From Fodinicola feengrottensis (GTDB taxonomy: Bacteria > Actinomycetota > Actinomycetes > Mycobacteriales > HKI-0501), in contig NZ_WOTO01000002.1 of the NCBI RefSeq assembly GCF_010993775.1, forward strand, positions 1 through 64,000: a stretch of 64,000 nt of DNA, given 5' to 3'. Below are positions 4,042 to 15,138 of the stretch, in pieces. Position numbers and translations under genes: made by a program. Below the pieces are notes generated by a model. It made no database searches. It was not told the origin of the DNA and saw nothing but the letters and a program-made list of their open reading frames with translations. Position 1 is the stretch's first letter; each line of letters begins with the position of its first letter.

Positions 4042-4512
4042 ATGACAAACACAGAGAGCATCACCGCAGACGTTGTCCGCATCGCCGCAGACCACAACAT
4101 GAGCAAGCACCTGGGAAACTGGACGACCGCGCGCAGCTTCGAGGTTCGAGCGCGTCGCGGCGCGGTGGTCATCGACCTGCGCTCGCCGGCCATCGCCGAG
4201 GGGGACATCGAGCTCGCCGTCGATATCGACCACAGCATGGTGAAACTGTTGCTGCCCAGCGACGCGACCGTCGATCAGTGGGGCATCGAGTGGACTGGCC
4301 GCGGCCGGATCAAGGATCTCGAAGGCGGCGGCGCTGGAGGTGGCCGCCGGGTGGTGATCACCGGCCGGATCCGCGGCGGGGAGATCCGCGTCAACCGCGG
4401 CGGGATCGCCATCCTGTCGGCGCTCTTCTCCCGCGAATTCGTGGCGGACGCGCTCCGGGCGCACCGGGAAGGCGCCATGACCACGATTGACGACCCCACC
4501 CGGGCGTTCTGA
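4042..4512 (+). CDS. Small beta-rich protein of unknown function, PadR partner
   Basis: Intact, 156 residues, soluble, without signal peptide or membrane helix. Alternating hydrophobic stretches (GAVVIDLRSP, DIELAVDIDHSMVKLLLP, RVVITGRIRGGEIRV) suggest a beta-helix or stacked beta fold, as in the C-terminal domain of LiaF-like cell-wall-stress proteins. Gly-rich linker GGGAGGGRR sits near residue 95. It is the only gene facing the PadR regulator and is probably its main target. I cannot assign a function. Confidence 0.75.
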   Translation: MTNTESITADVVRIAADHNMSKHLGNWTTARSFEVRARRGAVVIDLRSPAIAEGDIELAVDIDHSMVKLLLPSDATVDQWGIEWTGRGRIKDLEGGGAGGGRRVVITGRIRGGEIRVNRGGIAILSALFSREFVADALRAHREGAMTTIDDPTRAF

Positions 4513-4516
4513 CCAC

Positions 4517-5826
4517 CTACCAGGAAATGTCCGTACCCAGATCGAGACCGGCGATCGTGATGGGCGTGCCGCTCGCGATGCTGTCGTTGGCCGCGATGCC
4601 AACAGCAACCGAGCGCACCCCGTCGCGATAGTCGGCGGCGGTCGGTGGAGTGGGTCGTCTCCAGGTCCCACGAAAATGTCCTTCAGCAGTTTGGCGTCGC
4701 CGCCACCGTGGGCGCTGCCGTCAGCCGGAATATCGATGTGCCGAGCCGATTCCCAGTGTTGTTGTACGACCAGTTTTTCGCCCTGTGGACGGGTGTCGGT
4801 GCCGACGACGCGGTCCGGGGTAGCGCTCGGATCCACGATGACGCGGCCATCGCTCACCACCACCCCCGCGTTCCACGACTGTCAGCTCGGCTCGGCCTCG
4901 GGTTCCGTTGACGGCGACTGTGTAGCCTTCCCAGGGGCTGTGTGCATTCAGTGCGTACGACATGGTCGCGCCGCTCGCGTAGTCGACGATGACGCACAGA
5001 TTGTCCTCGATAGTGATGCCTCGCTGAAAACGTCCTGGTCGCGGAGATAGCCGTCGTATTTCTCGTTTTCCAGGTAGAGCGAGCGCAGCTTCGGATCGGC
5101 GCGCATGTCCAGCATGAACGGGTCGCGGCTGGGTACGTCCACGCTTCCCCTCGCCGGCCTCGCGGCCAGGCCGCGCCCCATCGCGTTTTCGCTACCGTAG
5201 AACCGAAGACCGCCACTGGCGAAGACGCGGACCGGGGTGTCCTGGATCCACCAGTTCACCAGGTCGAAGTGGTGCGATGCTTTGTGTACGAGCAAACCGC
5301 CGGAATTCTTCTTCTCGCGATGCCAACGGCGAAAGTAGTCGGCGCCGTGCGCGGTGTCCAGGACCCACTCGAAATGAACCGAGGTGATTTTCCCGATGGC
5401 CCCGCTCGCGATGACCTCGCGAAGCGCGGAGTTTCTCGGTGAGTAGCGGTAGTTGAAGGTGACGATGATCGACCGGCCGGACTTCTCCCTTGCGGCGCCG
5501 ATGCTTCGACAGCCTTCGGTGTCGATCGTCAATGGCTTCTCGACGATGACATCCGCACCGGCTTCGAGTGCGGCCACCACTGTCTGCGCGTGGGTGTGGT
5601 CAGGGCTGGTGACGATGACTCGGTCGACCCGCTCGTTCCTGACTATTTCCGCGACGGAGTCCGGTCCGTAAGTTGCCGCGCTGAGATGTCGTCCGTAGTA
5701 GTCGAGGCGCCCTCGGTTGCTGTCGGAGATGGCGACGAGGTCCGCGACGTCGCGGTGGACGGTGGTGCACGCGTCAACGTACATCTGAGCCCGGGATCCC
5801 AGGCCAATGATCGCGTACCGGGTCAC
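4517..5826 (-). CDS. Gfo/Idh/MocA-family NAD(P)-dependent oxidoreductase
   Basis: N-terminal Rossmann domain TRYAIIGLGSRAQMYVDAC, then VIVTSPDHTHAQTVVAALEAG and VIVEKPLT, which hold the conserved EKP lysine. The C-terminal alpha/beta domain includes NFNYRYSPRNSALREVIASGAIG-type sequence and GLLVHKASHHFDLVNWW with the expected His residues. The end DYRDGVRSVAVGIAANDSIASG is typical of the family. Substrates are sugars or cyclitols; the exact one cannot be read. Frame changes near 5030, 4830 and 4625 split the C-terminal third. The first 265 residues are uninterrupted. It stops 5 bp from the convergent 4042-4512 gene and is divergent from the SMC-like operon, 66 bp away. Confidence 0.82.
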
Positions 5827-5892
5827 GCCTTCTTTCTATCAAGAGCGCCCTGAGTAGTCCGATCGTGGGGGAGTCCCTAGAGTTGGGCAGTT

Positions 5893-7112
5893 GTGGAGTC
5901 CGATGAACCGAATCTGGACGGCTGGGCCGCCGAGGTCGCCGTCGTCGATGTCTACCGGCAGATCGTGTCGGTGTTGGGGCGTGGCGCGCGGTCGGTAATC
6001 ACCGATCCGGCGATGTTCGACGTGGCGGAGACCCTCTTCGCGGCCTTCGCGGAGGCCGGCGAGCGGGGCCCTCACAGTCGAGCAGATGCATGCGGCCTGC
6101 CGGCACTACCCGCGGGCCGTGGCCGAGGAGCGGGTACGGGTGTTGCGCGAGCTCAAGGCCATCCGACCGGCCTTCGAGAAGCCGAACGCGCGGGAGTTCC
6201 AGGCGTCCTTCACCGCGTACGTGTCGCTGCTGTTCGTCCAGCGGATGCTGCGTACCGGCGGGCAGGCGGAGCTGCATCAGCTGCTCGCGATCGAGCGGAT
6301 CAATCTGGAGTCGCGGGACGCGACCGAGGGGGACGCGCGGCGGGTCGCGGCGGAGATCACCCGGGCTTTCCGGCTGCTGGCGAACGAGCTGGTCGGGCTG
6401 GCGGTCGGCGGCACGATCGAGTCGTTGCGGGAGCGGGCGCCGTTGCTGTGGAGCGCGGACGAGCTGATCACCCGCGCGACCGGCGTACACGGGCAGATCC
6501 TGGAGCGGTGGCCGTCGATGGGGCGGGCCTGCATGGAGATGCGGGCCGGCGTCGACGCGTACCGGGATGCTTCCCAGTCGGCTTCCGCGCGACTCGCGGA
6601 CGACGCGGGTGCCACCCGCGCACTCGACCTGCTGCCGGTGGAGATGTGGAACTCGTTCGCGAAGCGAGCCACTGTACGAGAGTTGGCGGACGTGCTGGCC
6701 AACCACGTCTTTGACGCGCCGGCGGCGTGGCATGACGCGGTGGCGCTGGACGAGGCGTTGGCCACCACTGCCAAGCCGGTGCCGACGCGCATCCCCCCGC
6801 CACCGCGTCCGGCGCTGCCCGACCGGCAGGCCGCCGAGGGTGCCGTACGCGTCGACGCGGACCTCGAGCGGCTGCGCGTACTGGCCGAGGATTTGCTTGG
6901 CGGCCGTGATGCCGTCAGCATTCCGGAAGTGTTGCGCGAGGTGGGGGACTGGACGACGGCTCGGCGGGGTGTTCGCGGATCTGACCGCCGCGAGCAACAG
7001 CCCGGAGCTGGCGTACCGGATCGACTGGGAGGACACCGTGGAGCTGAGCGGCGTGGGTGCGGCGCACTGGATGACGCACGGCTGGTTCCGGCGGGCTGGG
7101 GCGGCCCGGTGA
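5893..7112 (+). CDS. Gene A of SMC-like operon: about 405-residue helical protein, kleisin-like role proposed
   Basis: I do not recognise the family by name. The N-terminus is a compact helical block that could be a winged helix (MFDVAETLFAAFAEAG, ALTVEQMHAACRHYP). A long helical middle follows (RVLRELKAIRPAFEKPNA, AAEITRAFRLLANELVGLA). After a Pro-rich linker (RIPPPPRPALP) a second small domain ends in YRIDWEDTVELSG and GWFRRAG. Size and layout suit a MukF/JetA-type linker protein, by position only. Frame changes near 6085 and 6965. GTG 5893 is the best start. The stop TGA (7110-7112) overlaps the next GTG. Confidence 0.6.
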
Positions 7113-7640
7113 CGCTGGACTCCGCGCTCTGGCTGGCCCGCGCCAGGGCCACCGGACCGCTGCTGGTGGACGCCGAGGAGCCGACTCCGCCGGGCCTGCG
7201 GCGGCTCCCGGAGCCCGGCTCCCAGAAGGCGTGGCTGATCGCTGGTACGCCCGACGACGTGACGCCGTCGGTGGTCAGCGAGCTGGGCCTGAGCCTGCTC
7301 ACCGTCGACCAGCCGAACGAGACCAACCGGGTGCTGCTGTGTTGCCTGCGGTGCTGTTGGGGTGAGCAGTCGGACCGGCCCTGGCCAGGGATTCCGGCTT
7401 CTTTCGACGACATCCTGGATGTCGCCGGCCAGCTCGCGCCGGGCCGCTCGGCGGAGTCGACCCGGATCCTGACCGTCGGTGCGCTGCGGCGTTTGGCGAC
7501 GCACCGCTGGCTGCTGCTGACGAGACGAGCCGGCGAGTTCGGTCCGGCTCGGTCCCGCGGTCGCGCTGTGGCCGGAGTCCGACCTCGCCAGCCTGCGGGA
7601 TCTGTGCCGGGACACGCCGGGGCCGCGGAGGCCCGAGTGA
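7109..7640 (+). CDS. Gene B of SMC-like operon: about 177-residue protein
   Basis: Starts at GTG 7109, overlapping gene A's stop by 4 nt (GTGA), and ends at TGA 7638-7640, overlapping gene C's GTG in the same way. Visible parts are LDSALWLARARATGPLLVD, KAWLIAGTPDDVTPSVVSELGLSLLTV, ILTVGALRRLATHRWLLL and the end ALWPESDLASLRDLC. One frame change near 7530. This piece reads through into gene C without a stop in the raw frame, which hides the gene boundary. It shows no catalytic motif; a role as a small complex subunit is inferred from the tight coupling. Confidence 0.5.
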
Positions 7641-8278
7641 CGGATCTGTACGCGCCGCTGCTGGACGCCCTGAGCGACCGGGAGCGGGATCAGGTGGTGG
7701 CCGCCTGGTCGGCCCTGGAATACAGCAGTGAGCCGGTGCCCGAGCTGCAGCTCGGTGCGTTGCGCGATGCCACCCTGCGCCAGCGGGTGGACGCACTGCT
7801 GGCGAAATCCGGTCGTACGCTCGTCTCGCTTGGCCCCGGTCTGTGGACTTCCGGTTATCGCGACGACATCGCCGAGCAACTGGTCGACCGTGGCTGGGGT
7901 GTGCTGCCGGAGCTGGACCGGGCGATCCTGACGATCATCCTGGTGCACTCGGTGGCGATTCCGCGATCGGAGGGGAAACTGCCACCCGGCACCTGGGTGT
8001 CGAATTTTCCCACTACTCCCACGCATTTGCGGCGAATCTCGCAGCTGGCCGGTGGTCGGCCGATGACCGACGCGCTGGCCAGGTTGCGCGGCGCCGGGTT
8101 GATCCAGATGGTCCGCGGCGCCGACCCGACCACCGAGGGTGCCTCGTACCAACCCGGTCCGCAGCTGCACCGGCTCACCCCGGCGGCCTCCCGCCGGCTG
8201 CAGGACGAGCTGATTCTCGCGGCCGGGCCGGCGACCCCGCTCGCCGCCGCCATCCGCGCCCGCCGTGGCACTCGTTAG
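7637..8278 (+). CDS. Gene C of SMC-like operon: 213-residue winged-helix-like (MukE/JetB-type) protein
   Basis: Intact from GTG 7637 to TAG 8276-8278. The first half is helical (LLDALSDRERDQVVAAWSAL). The second half reads like a winged helix: LDRAILTIILVHSVAIP, then LRRISQLAGGRPMTDALARL, RGAGLIQM and YQPGPQLHRLTPAASRRLQ. In MukBEF, Wadjet and related complexes a protein of this size made of winged helices (MukE, MksE, JetB) lies directly before the SMC gene, as here. Homology to those proteins is proposed, not shown. Gene D follows after 20 bp. Confidence 0.6.
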   Translation: MTDLYAPLLDALSDRERDQVVAAWSALEYSSEPVPELQLGALRDATLRQRVDALLAKSGRTLVSLGPGLWTSGYRDDIAEQLVDRGWGVLPELDRAILTIILVHSVAIPRSEGKLPPGTWVSNFPTTPTHLRRISQLAGGRPMTDALARLRGAGLIQMVRGADPTTEGASYQPGPQLHRLTPAASRRLQDELILAAGPATPLAAAIRARRGTR

Positions 8279-8298
8279 TCTTTAACGGAAGGAAAATC

Positions 8299-11200
8299 TT
8301 GCCCGCAGCAGTGGCGCGTACGGATGACGGATACGACGATGACGTGGTCGGTGGCCGGGTCCTGGTCGGCCTGCAGACCGTACACATCTCCAGGCTGTCC
8401 ATGCATCCGATCCCGATCAGCGCTGCCAGCCTGATCGCGGTCGCCGGTCAGGGGCCGAAGGATTCCAACGGTGCCGGCAAATCCTCGCTGATCGGTTCGG
8501 CGAGTTTCATCCACGCCGACGACCAGTGGCGGTTCAACTCCGGCGCCACCTCCGCGCTGGATCTGTTGTTCACCGCCGAAGACGCCGGCCAGGAAGGCCG
8601 GTGGTCGGACGCCAAGCATGGCTACATCATCGGTGTTTTCGCCGATCCAGCGGCAGACACCCTGCCGACCTTGCAGGACAGCGCGCTGACGGTGTGGATC
8701 CGGATCGACCGGGAACACAGCCCGCACGTGGTGTTCCGGTGGGCCGACGGGTTGAAGTTGCCGATCGGCCGCAGTGAGGCCGATCGGGAGAAGTCCGCCG
8801 ACGAAACCTGGGCGACACTGCCAAAACGTGGCCGCCGGCGCGGTGACCTGTCGGCTCGCGAAATGCCTCGGGTGTTGTTCGGTGACCATGTCCGGTGCGT
8901 TTCGTTCCTTTCCACGTCCGTACGAGCCAGTGCCACCGCCAACTTGTTGGCGCAGCCGTTGAACGACTTGCCCGCGCACCGGATTTTCTCCGCGATCGCC
9001 GCGTTGACCGGGCTGGACCGGGAAATCGAGCAGGAGCGGGTCGGCCGGATCCGCGAGCACGAAGAGCAGCGCAAAGTCGCCCGGGCGGAGGAACTGCTGG
9101 GCGAGTGGGAAGAGCACGCGCGGGCTATCGAGGCGAGCATTGACGATCGCGACGAGGCCCGGGCCGCCGTCGTCGAGGCCGAGCGGGCCTGGCGGTCCCG
9201 GGTCGCGGTCGCTGTTACCAAGGCGTACGAAGAAAAACAGAGCCTCGACTTCACCATCGACCGGCTCGCCGACGAAATCACCGAGAAGAAGGACAAGATC
9301 CGGGAGATCTCGGCCCAGATCAACGAGGTTTCCAACGACGACGAGTTCCAGCAGAAGCAACGGCTGGTGATGGAAACCCACCGCGGTCTGACCGGCCGGG
9401 AGCGGTATCTGGAAAGCGAACTGGCCCGCCGGGACGACCGGATCGAGCAGGACCTGAAGAAGGCGGACACGCTCCAGGAAGTCGCCGGGGGACGCGGACG
9501 GTCGCGAGGAGAGGCCGCCCTCGTCGAGCTGGAAACCGCGGTCGCCGCCCAGCAAGACGCGGTGAAAGCCTGCGGAGTGGCCGAAAGTCGGGTCGCCGCT
9601 GCCGCTGTACGACTGCGCTCGGCGGAGGCTGGCGAGGACCTGGCGCAGCAGGAGCTGCACCTGCTCGCGACCGCCGGCATTGAGGCGATCGCGGTCGCTG
9701 ACGCCGTCGGCGTGAGTGACGCCCAGCGGGCCCGCTGGGAGCCGATCCTCGCGCCCTACCGGCAGGCTGTCGTAGTGTCGACGGAAAACCTGGATGCGGC
9801 CGTACGAGCGTTGGTCGGCGAGCCGGGGTCCGTGGTTGTCCCGGCCAAGCCCGCGAAGGGCCGCAAACCCAAGGATGTGCCGGAAAGTACCGACCGCCGG
9901 TTCGACCTGTCCGGGTTTTTGGTGGCGCTGGCCGGACAGTACGAGCTGGGCGACGATCCGGAGCGGGTCACCGACATCGGCAGCGGCGCGGTGATCGTGG
10001 GTGGTTTCGCGGAGCCGACCACCGGCCGGGTGCAGCGTATCTCCCGCGCCGAGTTCGAGCTGGAGAATCTCCGGGACCTGTTGGTCGTTTCCGAGCAACG
10101 AAAATCCGCCGCCGACGTGGTCGTACGTGACGCCGAACGTCGGGTGCTTGGCTCCCGTGCTGCTGAGGAAGTCGCCACTATCCGAGAGGCGATCGAAACC
10201 AACCGGGTGGAGCGGGAGAAGATCTCCACCGAGCTGGCGGAAGTGCAGAGCAAGCTCGACGTGGCCGCCCGAGAGCGGGACAAGATGGTCGGCGACGCGG
10301 CTACCCGGAACGGGATCGTCGACAACCTGCTCAAGGAGCGGGACCGGTTTTCCCGGGACGTCACCACAATGCAGGACCAGCGCGGTGAGTTGGAAGCGCA
10401 GCGCGCGCAAACACAGCTGGGGGAGTTGCTCACCGAATGGGGCCACACCCTCGATGAGGCGCACACGTATGTGCTGTCGCTGGAAGAATCGCACCAGACG
10501 TGGAGCGAGAACGACGACTGGTGGTTGGAAGCCGACCGGCAGATGTCCACCGCGATCGCGAAATGCTTCCCGGACCGCGGCGACGCTGCATCACCAGACA
10601 ATGTGGTGCCCAGTGAGCTGCGGAATCTGTTCCAGCAATACCACGGACATGGCGCCGGCCGGGCCGCGCAGGCTCGGCAGGCGTTTCCGGCGCTGCGCAC
10701 GGCGGTCGCCGGTTACCTGCGCCAGCAGGAAACTTTCGACGGGCACCAGCGCCGGCAGATCGGTACCGAGCGTACCGACCGGCACAAGGACCTGGAAGGC
10801 GCCCGGCTCGGCCACGGCCAGGCAACGCAGGCGGCCGGCGCCTATCGATCGTCGCTCGCCGACGCGATCAAGAACCGGCTGAAGTCAGTGTCCGACGAGT
10901 TTGACCGGATCGACCGCAAATACGGCGGGTACGGCGCTTCTTTGCATTATCCGGTGCCAGAAGCGCCGAGCGACCCGACGCAGCCCTGGACCTGGGAGGT
11001 CACTCCGCAATGGCGGCGCGCGCGCGGAGGGAAAGCGGCTGATCGCGTACAACCGGCGCGGCAACACCGCCCAGATGGATGAAAAAGCCGTCAAGTGGTG
11101 TCTGTGCGGCGGCGATGGCGGGTGCGCAAGACCGGCCCTTGACGCTGATTCTGGACGAGCTGGGCCGGAACCTGGGCAAGCAGCACCGGCGGGAGGCGGT

Positions 11201-11456
11201 GTCGCTGCTCGGCCAGATTGGGGCGGACAGCGGGATCACCGTGATCGGCGCGCTGCAGGACGACATGGAGCGCTATGCCATCGACGCCTGCGGGCAATAC
11301 ATCAAACTGCGCCGCAGTTCGGACTCCATGCCGTACAACGAGCAGCCCGTCATCATTGGTTACGAACCGCGGGCGGCGCGGCTGGAACTGCTGCGCGGGT
11401 GGCTCACCGGCAATGGCTACGTGGATCGCGACGAGGAATCCCACGCTGCGGGATAA
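8299..11456 (+). CDS. Gene D: SMC/MukB-like coiled-coil ATPase of about 1050 residues
   Basis: The N-terminal ATPase half has a P-loop in VAGQGPKDSNGAGKSSL (about residues 45-60). A first coiled coil covers about 245-455. A globular hinge-like part (470-580) contains WEPILAPYRQAVVVS and GEPGSVVVP. A second coiled coil follows (580-715), then a helical part. The C-terminal ATPase half has YNRRGNTAQMDEKAVK, Walker B LTLILDELGRNLG and GITVIGALQDDMERYAI. The order head-coil-hinge-coil-head is that of SMC/MukB/JetC proteins. TTG 8299 has GGAAGGAAAA just upstream; the reading frame is open further upstream but overlaps gene C. Frame changes near 11010 and 11090 separate Walker B from the rest. Confidence 0.78.
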
Positions 11457-11524
11457 TGTCGGTTAATCCCATGCACCGGGATAATCCGCGGGGGTTTTCC
11501 TGGTTCTGGTGATAGACAGGGTTC

Positions 11525-12757
11525 ATGGCACAGGTGGACCAGGCGAACGACACGGCGACGACGGTGAACGACCACTGGAAGCGCAATCTTGTCGTGTGTC
11601 TTGTCGGTTCCTTCACCACGATTGTCGCGATGACTTTGTTGCTGCCGTCTTTGCCGCTCTATGTTGAACAACTCGGCGTTCGCGGGCACGCGGCGATCGT
11701 GCAGTGGTCGGGCATCGCGTACAGTGCCACTTTTCTGACGGCCGCGCTGACCGCGCCGATTTGGGGCATGCTCGCGGATCGGTACGGGCGCAAATCCATG
11801 CTGATCAGGGCCAGCCTCGGCATGGCGATCGTGATCTCGCTGATTGGGCTGTCGCAGAATATCTGGCAGTTGGTCGGGCTCCGACTGCTGGTCGGTCTGG
11901 TCGGCGGTTATGCCTCCGGATCGACGATCATGGTCGCCGCGCAGACCCCGAAATCCCGGACGGCCTGGGCCCTGGGGGTGCTGTCCGGTGGCGTGATGGC
12001 CGGCAACATCGCCGGTCCATTGATCGGTGGGGTGGCAGCGGCCACTATCGGTATTCGGCAGGGGTTCTTCGCGGCCGGCGGACTGATCTTCCTTACGTTT
12101 CTGGCGACCTGCTTTCTGCTGAAGGAAAAGCGCGTCGTCCGCGCGGCGAAAAATCCGGGCGTACGAGTAAAACTGTGGTCGGAGATCACCCGTCCAGGCC
12201 AGGTGATCGTGCTGCTGGGCACCGCGAGCCTGCTGATGTTCGCGACCATGTCCATCGAGCCGATTATCACGGTTTTCGTACAGCAACTGACCGGCAGTAC
12301 GGCCAATCTGGCCACCATTTCCGGAATAATCATGGCGGTCGGCGCCGCCGGCAGCATTCTCTCGGCCCCGCGGTTGGGACGGCTGGCGGATCGTGTCGGG
12401 CATATTACCGTCATCATCGGCTGCCTGCTGGCCGCCGGCGTCCTGCTGTTCGCCCAAGCCGCCGCCACAAACATCTATGAGCTCGGAGTTCTGCGGCTCC
12501 TGATGGGCTTCTTCTGCCTTGGTGGTCTGCTGCCCTGTATTGCCGCCGCTATTCGGCATCGGGTGCCGAACTCGGCGGTCGGTCAGGTGCTCGGCTACAG
12601 CGTTTCCGCCCAGTATGCGGGCCAGGTCCTCGGCCCGATCCTGGGCGGCCTGGTCGGCGGCCACCTGGGGATGCGGACGGTTTTCGTGGCCACTGCGGTG
12701 ATTCTGCTCGCGGGTGCCGCTCTCACCTTCTTCTCTCGCCGGAAAGTGCCAGCCTAG
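11525..12757 (+). CDS. MFS drug/proton antiporter, DHA1 type
   Basis: Intact, 410 residues, twelve predicted membrane helices. The loop after helix 2 carries GMLADRYGRKSMLI, the MFS motif A, repeated in reduced form as RLGRLADRVGHITVI after helix 8. Helix 5 region GGVMAGNIAGPLIGG matches motif C of antiporters. These features support export of drugs or metabolites by proton exchange. It begins 68 bp after the SMC-like operon on the same strand and ends in a 35-bp convergent overlap with the next transporter gene. Confidence 0.88.
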   Translation: MAQVDQANDTATTVNDHWKRNLVVCLVGSFTTIVAMTLLLPSLPLYVEQLGVRGHAAIVQWSGIAYSATFLTAALTAPIWGMLADRYGRKSMLIRASLGMAIVISLIGLSQNIWQLVGLRLLVGLVGGYASGSTIMVAAQTPKSRTAWALGVLSGGVMAGNIAGPLIGGVAAATIGIRQGFFAAGGLIFLTFLATCFLLKEKRVVRAAKNPGVRVKLWSEITRPGQVIVLLGTASLLMFATMSIEPIITVFVQQLTGSTANLATISGIIMAVGAAGSILSAPRLGRLADRVGHITVIIGCLLAAGVLLFAQAAATNIYELGVLRLLMGFFCLGGLLPCIAAAIRHRVPNSAVGQVLGYSVSAQYAGQVLGPILGGLVGGHLGMRTVFVATAVILLAGAALTFFSRRKVPA

Positions 12758-14132
12758 GCTGCCGTACGGCGTCGCCGGCGGTGCGGTGCAGGCGAGCGGC
12801 GCCGATCGTAGCCAGGAGCGGGATGACCGCGAGGACACCAAAAGCGACGGTGTAGGCGGCCGCCGGACCGACCAACGTGTTGCCCAGGCTCAGCGCGACG
12901 GTCGCGACCGCGACACTCAGGCCGGCTGCCGTTTGCTGGGTGGTCGCGAGCAGCGTGTTCGCGTCGCGCAAGTGGTCCGGCGGGGGGTGTCGCTGAAGGC
13001 CATGGTGGAATAGCCGGTCAGTCCGACCGAGCGAGCGACACCGCTAAGGAGCGCCACCAAGGCGATCAGCGCGACGGGCGTGTCCGCGGTCAGGAAACAA
13101 CACGCGATCACAGTGGCGGTTAGGCCAACTGTCGAGGCCAGCAGCAGCGTACGAAAGCCGAAACGGTTGAGCAGGTAAGTCGTCGCAGGTTTGATGCCAA
13201 TGTTGCCGACGAAAACGAAAAGCACGATCGCGCCGGACTTGACCGGGCTCCAGTGGAAGATTTCCTGGAAAAGCAACGGAAGCAGGAAAGGCACCGCGCC
13301 GGCGGTCAGCCAGAACAGCGCCCCGCCGGTGACGGACGCTCGGAAAGTCCTGACCTGGAGCGTACCCAGATTGATCAGCGGAGCGGCGGTTTTCAGCAGG
13401 TGCCGCACCGCGATCGCGCCGGCCACCGCGGAAACCGCGATGATCGCCACCACCAGCGGCACCGCGGCATGCGGCTCGGACAGCAGATGCGCCGCGTACG
13501 TGAGGCCGCCCAGCGCCACCCCGGTGAGGACGACGCCACCGGTGTCCAGCCGGCCGGGCCGCGGGCCGGCGGTGGTGGTGATCAGTCGCCAGGCGACGAA
13601 AAACGCTCCGATGCCGAGCGGGATGTTGAGCAGGAACATCCACTGCCAGGTCGCGTACGTGGTGATGATCCCGCCCAGCAGGGGCGCGGCGACCGGCGCC
13701 ACCAGGCCGGGCCAGACGATGTAGGACATGATCCGCGGGATGTCCGGTTTCCGGGTCTTGGACAGTACGACCAGGCGTCCGACCGGCACCATCATCGCGC
13801 CGCCGGCTCCTTGCAGGACGCGCATGGCCACCAGGACACCGAGACTCGTACTGGCGGCGCAGGCGACCGACGCGAGGGTGAAGATCGCGATAGCGGACAG
13901 GAACACCGGGCGCGCACCAAAGCGCGCGGTCAGCCAGCCACTGAGCGGGATCAGCACCGCGAGGGTCAGCAGGTACGCGGTGTGATGACGAGACCGACGG
14001 GGTCGTCGGCGGCACTCCCAGCGCGGTGCCGATCCGCGGCGCCGCGGTCGACACGATGGTGCCGTCCAGGTTCTCCATAAAGAAGCAGCCGGCGACCAGG
14101 AGAGCGGTCGCGCGGTGGCGTGAATCAATCAT
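12723..14132 (-). CDS. MFS multidrug exporter, DHA2 (EmrB/QacA) type
   Basis: N-terminus RHRATALLVAGCFFMENLDGTIVSTAAPRIG contains the DHA2 motif around LDxTIV. TAYLLTLAVLIPLSGWLTARFGARPVFL gives motif A, and about 14 hydrophobic segments follow over 460 residues. Frame changes near 14000 and 12970 move the first 50 and last 80 residues into other frames. ATG 14132 is the chosen start. It is divergent from a LysR gene 66 bp away, its probable regulator. Confidence 0.85.
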
Positions 14133-14198
14133 GGATCTAGACTCGCTGACACCACTACTGCGCACTAGTTCCGATATGTACAGTCAGGATTGCGCCCG

Positions 14199-15138
14199 AT
14201 GCAACTGCCAGACATGAACCTGCTTCCGGCGCTGGACGCGTTGCTTCGGGAGGCGAGCGTCACCGGCGCGGCCGCCCAGCTCAGCGTGTCCGCGTCCGCG
14301 ATGAGTCGCACCCTGAGCCGGCTCCGCCGGGTGGTCGGCGATCCCCTGCTCGTGCCGTCCGGGCGTGGTCTGACGCTGACCCCGCGGGCCTGCGAGCTGC
14401 GGCCGCGGGTGGAGGCCGCGCTGGCCGGTGCGATGGCCGCGCTGCAGCCGCGCTGGGAGGTCGCCATGGCGGACGTACGGCGGGATTTCGCGATCCGGAC
14501 GAACGAACGACGCGGTCGCGATTGGCGTCGGGGCGGCGCTCAGCGGGTATGCGGCGCGGGAGGCTCCGGGCGTTCGGCTGCGGATCCTGCCGGAGGGCGA
14601 CGAGAATCCGGTTGACCTGCGGGATCGGATCGACCTGGACATTGGGGCGCTGCCGGACCTGCCGCACGACGTACGCAGCAGCGACCTTGGCGAGCACCAC
14701 ATCGTGGCCGTCGCGCGGGCTGGCACGTCGTACGCGAAGGATCCTTTGACAGTGGCCCGGTTCGCTGAGATTCCGCACGTCACGGTGTCTCGCCGCGGCC
14801 GCATGCACAGTGTTGTCGACGAGGTGCTGGCTGCTCAAAACCTCAGCCGCCGGGTGCTGGCCACCGTTCCGACAGCGAGTGCGGCCTGTTTCTTCGCGCT
14901 GGAATCGGACGTGCTGGCGCTGGTGTCGTCGGAATTCGCCGTACGGGCGGCGGCCGCCATGCCGTTGGTCGTGATGGACATCCCGCTCGACCTGCCGACC
15001 GTACGGCTCAGCCAGGCCTGGCACCTGCGGTTGGACGCCGATCCCGCGCATCGATGGTTGCGGGAGACGGTCGCGAGGATCGTTCGGCAGAGTGCCCCGA
15101 ACAGTGCCCCAGACCAAGCGACCTCGGTGTCCGGCTGA
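14199..15138 (+). CDS. LysR-family transcriptional regulator
   Basis: The N-terminal helix-turn-helix reads MNLLPALDALLREASVTGAAAQLSVSASAMSRTLSRLRRVV, then GDPLLVPSGRGLTLTPRA. The C-terminal co-inducer domain continues in a second frame from about 14505 (GVRLRILPEGDENPVDLRDRIDLDIG). One base is apparently missing or added there. Length of about 312 residues fits the family. Divergent placement points to control of the DHA2 exporter. Confidence 0.85.

What the first reader, a model, noticed from the sequence alone, without database searches (positions are those of the whole stretch)
5893..11456. Four-gene SMC/MukB-like operon without a JetD-type nuclease
Seen: four coupled genes (about 405, 177, 213 and 1050 residues) joined by GTGA overlaps at 7109 and 7637 and a 20-bp gap. 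The last encodes a head-coil-hinge-coil-head ATPase with P-loop DSNGAGKSS and Walker B LTLILDELGRNLG. Known: MukBEF, MksBEF and Wadjet (JetABCD) use linker, winged-helix and SMC genes in this order, and Wadjet adds a nuclease, JetD. Inferred: this could be a distinct SMC-type complex with an additional small subunit (gene B) and no JetD gene, acting in plasmid or phage defence or in chromosome folding. The C-terminal motif NTAQMDEKAVK with DELGRNLG is not the usual SMC signature I would expect for Smc or Rad50.
Basis: partly seen in the sequence, partly recalled or inferred. Interest (0 to 1): 0.75.

Follow-up and report, generated by a model that had tools for sequence, protein, structure and literature searches.

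The report
Nuclease-free Wadjet-like SMC complex
Many filamentous soil bacteria carry a conserved but apparently undescribed four-gene DNA-handling motor that is a distant cousin of the plasmid-killing Wadjet system without its DNA-cutting part; some relatives carry the cutter and others seem to have swapped it for a protein kinase, so defence and housekeeping versions of one machine can be compared directly.

Summary
The operon is real. The same-genus relative G001 has it intact as A (400 aa), B (171), C (212) and D (1036), with overlapping genes. The window copy has about five net frameshifts. Neighbouring genes and the host's own Smc are also broken, and dN/dS is 0.06-0.11, so I read these as assembly errors. 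D is an SMC ATPase. A's closest solved folds are MukF kleisins, and C's are KITE proteins (ScpB, Nse3, MukE, JetB). B has no match. No part of the window operon matches Pfam, NCBIfam or PADLOC convincingly. All four genes travel together in actinomycetes, with one exception. The 4-gene form follows host genera and is fixed in Kribbella (38/38) and Jiangella (12/12). In Micromonospora the family is patchy (18/151). There D is usually followed by a JetD/Toprim nuclease gene, or by a kinase sharing that protein's N-terminal domain. JetD of this type was not found in the 11 four-gene genomes tested. D lacks the ABC signature SGG in 105 of 106 sequences. Best reading: a new Wadjet-like SMC class whose nuclease-free branch has become a chromosomal complex, as proposed for MksBEF. 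The anatomy is well supported. The function is inferred.

The parts
5893..7112 (+). Gene A: MukF/JetA-type kleisin (400 aa intact in G001). Frameshifted in the window near 6069 and 6966.
   Evidence: 88% identity to the intact G001 gene across three frames; indels. The AlphaFold model of a homologue shows an N-terminal winged helix, helices, linker and C-terminal winged helix. Foldseek PDB top five are MukF chains, then JetABCD core at rank 7.
7109..7640 (+). Gene B: additional small subunit (171 aa in G001), probably with a winged helix in its C-terminal half. Frameshifted near 7520.
   Evidence: 75-78% identity to G001 B. Conserved upstream of C in nearly all loci. No PDB profile match to an SMC partner and no Pfam match. 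Weak profile similarity to C only.
7637..8278 (+). Gene C: KITE subunit (213 aa), intact, two winged-helix units
   Evidence: AlphaFold pLDDT 90.4, pTM 0.81. Foldseek PDB hits: ScpB, Nse1-Nse3-Nse4, MukE, JetB of Wadjet 8as8. dN/dS 0.09 against G001.
8299..11456 (+). Gene D: SMC-type ATPase (1036 aa in G001). Frameshifted near 11016 and 11097.
   Evidence: 83-95% identity to intact G001 D. Head profile aligns to canonical JetC, prob 90.6%, E 1.3e-6. Whole-genome match to self at 100%.
8467..8487 (+). Walker A of D, DSNGAGK within GPKDSNGAGKSS (approximate span)
   Evidence: Sequence. The Walker A pattern was found in 105 of 106 homologues.
11057..11100 (+). Signature region of D, RRGNTAQMDEKAVK (approximate span). 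Canonical JetC has NTA..SGGEQEK here; SGG is absent.
   Evidence: Profile alignment. 105 of 106 homologues have NTAxMDEKAVK or close variants.
11138..11174 (+). Walker B of D, LTLILDELGRNLG, with D-E catalytic pair (approximate span)
   Evidence: Sequence. LVLDELGRNL or LILDELGRNL in 105 of 106 homologues.

Best explanation
The operon encodes an SMC-kleisin-KITE ATPase complex of the MukBEF/Wadjet architecture: A is the kleisin bridging two D heads, C is a KITE subunit on the kleisin, and B is an extra small subunit, probably a second winged-helix partner (shown by sequence and predicted fold, except B; the contacts are inferred). By analogy with relatives, the complex binds DNA and extrudes or compacts it with D's ATPase (inferred). 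In the mobile form an effector sits on the same complex: JetD-like nuclease E, or a protein kinase joined to the same N-terminal adaptor domain. The window belongs to a branch that has no effector and follows host genera, so it most likely acts as a non-cutting chromosomal or plasmid-handling SMC complex next to the normal Smc, as proposed for MksBEF after loss of JetD (inferred).
For: Fold matches of A to MukF and of C to ScpB, Nse3, MukE and JetB. D head profile aligns to JetC. A, B and C lie upstream of D in every locus with enough flank except L071, with 4-bp overlaps common. E matches JetD_C at 23.0 bits (cut-off 22), DUF2399 at 30.8 (cut-off 23.4) and PADLOC JetD1; invariant Toprim residues E and DxD; profile match to canonical JetD, E 1.8e-5. 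The adaptor is shared by E, the kinases and the L176 JetD. 4-gene forms cluster by genus in the tree. Kribbella 38/38, Jiangella 12/12, Actinomadura 48/65, Micromonospora 18/151. E was not detected in the 11 tested four-gene genomes and was detected in the control. Canonical Smc is also present. Purifying selection.
Against: No function was tested. The kleisin model has low overall confidence (pLDDT 63) and low TM-scores. B has no predicted structure. D matches canonical JetC only at one head segment. Fixation in a genus is compatible with a useful defence gene. 48 of 65 in Actinomadura, some with stop codons or splits, shows the operon can be lost. An effector could act in trans and escape a sequence search.
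Confidence: 0.6

Rival explanations
1. The four-gene form is still a defence system. It blocks or silences small plasmids by entrapment or compaction without cutting, like a Wadjet sensor that needs no nuclease.
For: Homologues with a nuclease or kinase are patchy, and some are broken, as defence genes often are. Architecture like JetABC.
Against: Fixed in Kribbella and Jiangella and clusters by genus. Not found in phage or viral records.
Confidence: 0.2
2. The four-gene form is a full defence system whose effector is encoded elsewhere, for example a kinase or another nuclease acting in trans.
For: Kinases replace the nuclease in some relatives. Eleven Actinomadura or related loci have a kinase ORF within 6 kb downstream of D. 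In L176 a JetD lies convergent to the operon.
Against: E is not found elsewhere in the 11 four-gene genomes tested. The Actinomadura kinases lack an observed adaptor domain and may be ordinary lineage synteny.
Confidence: 0.12
3. A canonical Wadjet, MukBEF, Smc-ScpAB or SbcCD operon seen through sequencing errors.
For: SMC architecture; weak coiled-coil hits to SMC_prok_B.
Against: The intact G001 genes also match no Pfam or PADLOC Jet model convincingly. G001 has a separate canonical Wadjet-like operon and a separate Smc.
Confidence: 0.03
4. A decaying pseudogene operon in the window's species.
For: Five net frameshifts in A, B and D.
Against: C is intact; dN/dS 0.06-0.11. Neighbouring genes and Smc are frameshifted in the same assembly, which is 74.6% complete.
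Confidence: 0.05

Closest known systems
Wadjet (JetABCD, types I-III; EptABCD; MksBEFG)
   Same: SMC, kleisin and KITE genes in one operon. In some relatives a JetD-type Toprim nuclease gene follows the SMC gene. D head aligns to JetC.
   Different: Extra gene B; no recognisable sequence match of A or C to JetA or JetB; signature SGG missing in D; no nuclease in most lineages; kinase in place of nuclease in some. The review read here lists only types I-III (PMC10586767).
MukBEF / MksBEF condensins
   Same: Kleisin with MukF-like fold; KITE with MukE-like fold; no nuclease, as in the window.
   Different: Extra gene B; order kleisin-B-KITE-SMC; no sequence-level match in Pfam.
Smc-ScpAB
   Same: KITE fold closest to ScpB.
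   Different: A separate canonical Smc exists in 11 of 12 genomes tested, including the window's; D is not it.
Lamassu and MADS (LmuB, mad3, mad8)
   Same: Weak SMC-like or ATPase profile matches of some D homologues. Lamassu effector proteins carry diverse enzymatic domains (PMC10586767).
   Different: Matches are partial; no kleisin/KITE set is known to me for them; gene content differs.

Membership tests
Wadjet (JetABCD) | SMC ATPase JetC | tested here: inconclusive
   Head segment aligns to JetC. PADLOC JetC2 in 5 of 18 homologues, best 1.9e-6, but not in the window-genus protein.
Wadjet (JetABCD) | Kleisin JetA | tested here: inconclusive
   Fold search: MukF first, JetABCD core chain at rank 7, E 0.034. 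No sequence-profile match to actinobacterial JetA.
Wadjet (JetABCD) | KITE JetB | tested here: met
   Fold matches KITE proteins, including JetB 8as8_C with TM 0.47-0.50. No sequence-profile match.
Wadjet (JetABCD) | JetD Toprim nuclease in the operon | tested here: not met
   Absent after D in the window and in G001; no E-type match in the genomes. Present in other branches.
Wadjet (JetABCD) | Restricts circular plasmids | not testable with these tools
   Needs an experiment.
MukBEF / MksBEF | Kleisin and KITE with MukF/MukE folds, SMC, no nuclease | tested here: met
   the kleisin model is of low confidence.
MukBEF / MksBEF | Three-subunit set with sequence similarity to MukB/MksB | tested here: not met
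   Fourth gene B is conserved. No Muk/Mks family match in Pfam or NCBIfam.
SMC / ABC-type ATPases | Walker A, Walker B with catalytic Glu | tested here: met
   Walker A pattern in 105 and Walker B D-E pair in 106 of 106 homologues.
SMC / ABC-type ATPases | ABC signature motif (SGG) | tested here: not met
   NTAxMDEKAVK replaces NTA..SGGEQEK.
Smc-ScpAB | Match to SMC_prok_B over the curated cut-off | tested here: not met
   18.9 bits against a cut-off of 567.

The most novel reading that the evidence does not exclude
A previously undescribed class of bacterial SMC complexes with two small subunits and a variant ATPase signature, on which the output module is exchangeable through a common adaptor domain: JetD nuclease, protein kinase with an unknown partner protein, or nothing. 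The no-effector branch would be a domesticated chromosomal complex fixed in whole genera.
Probability: 0.5. Interest if true: 0.85.

Novelty: new variant of a known kind. Interest (0 to 1): 0.72.

Why it matters
A published review suggests that nuclease-free MksBEF, and perhaps MukBEF, arose from Wadjet-like defence systems by losing JetD (PMC10586767), but clear intermediates would help test this. This family appears to hold nuclease-armed, kinase-armed and unarmed forms of one complex in related, often culturable bacteria. It could show how defence and chromosome organisation interconvert, whether SMC sensors can drive signalling instead of cutting, and how an SMC ATPase works without the usual signature motif.

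Tried and rejected
Single-protein searches of Pfam, NCBIfam, PADLOC and the PDB with window pieces gave no family. The first scan of named genomes with the window D fragment found nothing, because exact peptide patterns from one sequence were too strict; the alignment scan then found 194 relatives. One order-wide search failed technically. Conserved neighbours: SbcD-type genes appear in 18 loci, but at varying distance and in at least two contexts, so I treat them as synteny or a separate module, not a subunit. A HEAT-repeat-like 1100-aa gene and kinases follow D in Actinomadura; left open, since it is restricted to that lineage. Profile comparison of B with C, and of A, B and C with canonical JetA/JetB, gave no usable match. 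One dN/dS segment (9520-11010) was misframed and is discarded. The plasmid hit is an 11.85-Mb record, clearly a chromosome. A regular-expression count of 'SGG-like' motifs (51) picked up glycine-rich loops after the signature region and is not evidence of a signature motif. The 'no A' line is a script error; co-occurrence rests. Gene calls come from my own codon-position script, not a gene finder, so lengths of flanking genes are approximate.
Full report
OBSERVATION. In the window only gene C is an open frame. The other three are broken by small indels, but the same-genus genome G001 carries the whole operon intact, at 75-95% protein identity in most segments. Aligned to G001, the window has net +1 changes near 6069, 6966, 7520, 11016 and 11097, and a compensating pair at 9485/9510. 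Neighbouring genes are also split across frames, the host's own Smc gene is in three pieces, and the genome is listed at 74.6% completeness. In correctly framed segments dN/dS between window and G001 is 0.06-0.11. I therefore treat the frameshifts as assembly errors, not decay; resequencing would settle it.

WHAT THE PROTEINS ARE. None of the pieces matched a family convincingly, nor did the intact proteins or their homologues beyond weak SMC-type hits for D and winged-helix hits for C. C was modelled confidently (pLDDT 90.4, pTM 0.81). Its best solved relatives are KITE proteins: ScpB, Nse1-Nse3-Nse4, MukE and the Wadjet KITE JetB. A was modelled poorly overall (pLDDT 63), but with an N-terminal winged helix, helices, a flexible linker and a C-terminal winged helix. 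The five best of 350,542 PDB chains are MukF (best E 5e-4), with the JetABCD core at rank 7. TM-scores are low, so this rests on the consistent identity of the top hits. D has SMC-type Walker A and B motifs at its two ends. Its C-terminal head aligns to canonical actinobacterial JetC with 90.6% probability, E 1.3e-6. B remains unassigned: it is conserved, has no match, and I could not model it. A winged helix in its C-terminal half is only my reading of the sequence.

A VARIANT ATPASE SIGNATURE. The JetC alignment places the canonical NTA..SGGEQEK signature opposite NTAQMDEKAVK in D. In 105 of 106 homologues the segment is NTAxMDEKAVK or a close variant, and the SGG is missing, while the Walker B D-E pair is kept. 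Its mechanistic meaning is unknown.

THE FOUR GENES TRAVEL TOGETHER. D relatives were found in 7 of 101 close genomes, 29 of 395 genomes of the class and 194 candidate stretches of named genomes, the 80 kept loci all being actinomycetes or actinobacterial MAGs. Among 86 loci examined, C is upstream of D in 84, and A and B in 80 and 81; all but one of the gaps are contig ends. The exception is Antribacter (L071), which has D and E but no detectable A-C. Adjacent genes usually overlap by 4 or 8 bp.

A NUCLEASE IS A FACULTATIVE FIFTH GENE. In nine named loci a gene E starts inside the end of D. Examples match JetD_C at 23.0 bits (cut-off 22) and DUF2399 at 30.8 (cut-off 23.4) in Pfam, and PADLOC JetD1 at up to 9e-11. 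E keeps the Toprim glutamate and DxD and aligns by profile to canonical JetD. Further Micromonospora loci show the same D-E order. E was not detected in any of 11 whole genomes with the four-gene form, including the window's and G001, and was strongly detected in the control. The window's genome has no JetD_C match above the cut-off, though its frameshifts weaken that single result.

A KINASE CAN STAND IN ITS PLACE. In L081 (Saccharothrix), L167 and L168 (Micromonospora) the gene after D keeps the N-terminal part of E but continues into a protein kinase (Pkinase 94-95 bits in L081 and L168). It is followed by a protein of about 340 aa with no known family. More distant Micromonospora loci carry a related kinase, next to D (L180) or on the opposite strand nearby (L177), and one carries a convergent JetD gene (L176). 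The E N-terminal profile detects the L176 JetD (3e-8) and, more weakly, the L177 kinase; the L180 match alone is not significant, but L180 is about 42% identical to the other kinases. These E-values are for a database of six sequences. I infer a common adaptor with exchangeable catalytic parts.

TWO LIFESTYLES. In a tree of D, four-gene forms cluster by host genus (Kribbella, Jiangella, Nonomuraea, Actinomadura and others), while nuclease carriers fall in two clusters, and starred branches force at least three changes of state. The rooting is unsure because the outgroup branch is very long, so gain versus loss of E is not decided. The gene is in 38 of 38 Kribbella and 12 of 12 Jiangella genomes, 48 of 65 Actinomadura, but only 18 of 151 Micromonospora, several of them broken or interrupted. 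No relative was found in phage records or viral contigs, and the single plasmid hit is an 11.85-Mb record. Canonical Smc was found in 11 of 12 genomes tested, and G001 also has a separate canonical Wadjet-like operon. The four-gene complex is thus an additional SMC system.

MECHANISM. Shown: gene content, conservation, selection, kleisin-like and KITE-like folds, SMC motifs, and facultative nuclease or kinase partners. Inferred: ATP-driven DNA loop capture or extrusion by ABCD, effector docking through the adaptor, and a non-cutting chromosomal or DNA-maintenance role for the unarmed branch. Published work supports the analogy: JetABC is the sensor and JetD the cutter, and P. aeruginosa MksBEF, which contributes to chromosome organisation, probably arose by loss of JetD (PMC10586767); MksG/JetD is a Toprim nuclease needed for plasmid control (PMC10123090).

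NOVELTY. The review read here recognises Wadjet types I-III. My literature searches found no description of a five-gene or kinase-bearing form, but only open-access papers were searchable. I do not file the window operon as a Wadjet, because its defining nuclease was tested and not found. It works like the SMC core of one. I rate it a new variant of a known kind, with an unresolved possibility that the family deserves its own class.

Noticed in passing
L183 (G001:C2:1066000-1085000): The same-genus relative carries a separate canonical Wadjet-like operon (JetD_C match, P-loop SMC of 1132 aa), so both systems coexist in this genus.
   Followed up: partly
L046:78-7186, L101:13-7174 (L097 similar): Upstream of the nuclease-bearing operon lies a same-strand module: an unknown protein, a helicase, an SbcD-like phosphoesterase and an SbcC-like ATPase. 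It may be a second defence module.
   Followed up: partly
L168:11459-12493, L081:9221-10279, L180:12536-13552: A protein of about 340 aa (beginning ...RIALEPYFLHQ...) follows the kinase in the loci looked at; no Pfam or PADLOC family.
   Followed up: partly
L168:8793-9707: The D gene of a Micromonospora kinase-type system is interrupted by a transposase-like ORF.
   Followed up: no
L071 (Antribacter gilvus): D and the nuclease gene E are present without detectable A, B and C in the 10 kb upstream.
   Followed up: no
L050, L052, L056, L068, L079, L084, L087, L094, L103: In Actinomadura and Thermomonospora a protein kinase ORF, often after a HEAT-repeat-like 1100-aa gene, lies on the same strand downstream of D.
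   Followed up: partly
L177:12949-16068: A 1039-aa ORF near a kinase-type system has a C-terminal stretch that by eye resembles a GHKL ATPase; a transposase-like ORF lies between it and D.
   Followed up: no
window 4500-14200: Small insertions split several genes across frames here; other genes in this window should be read with that in mind.
   Followed up: partly
NZ_LT559118.1 (L193): The plasmid collection holds an 11.85-Mb Nonomuraea gerenzanensis record labelled plasmid I, which is almost certainly the chromosome.
   Followed up: no
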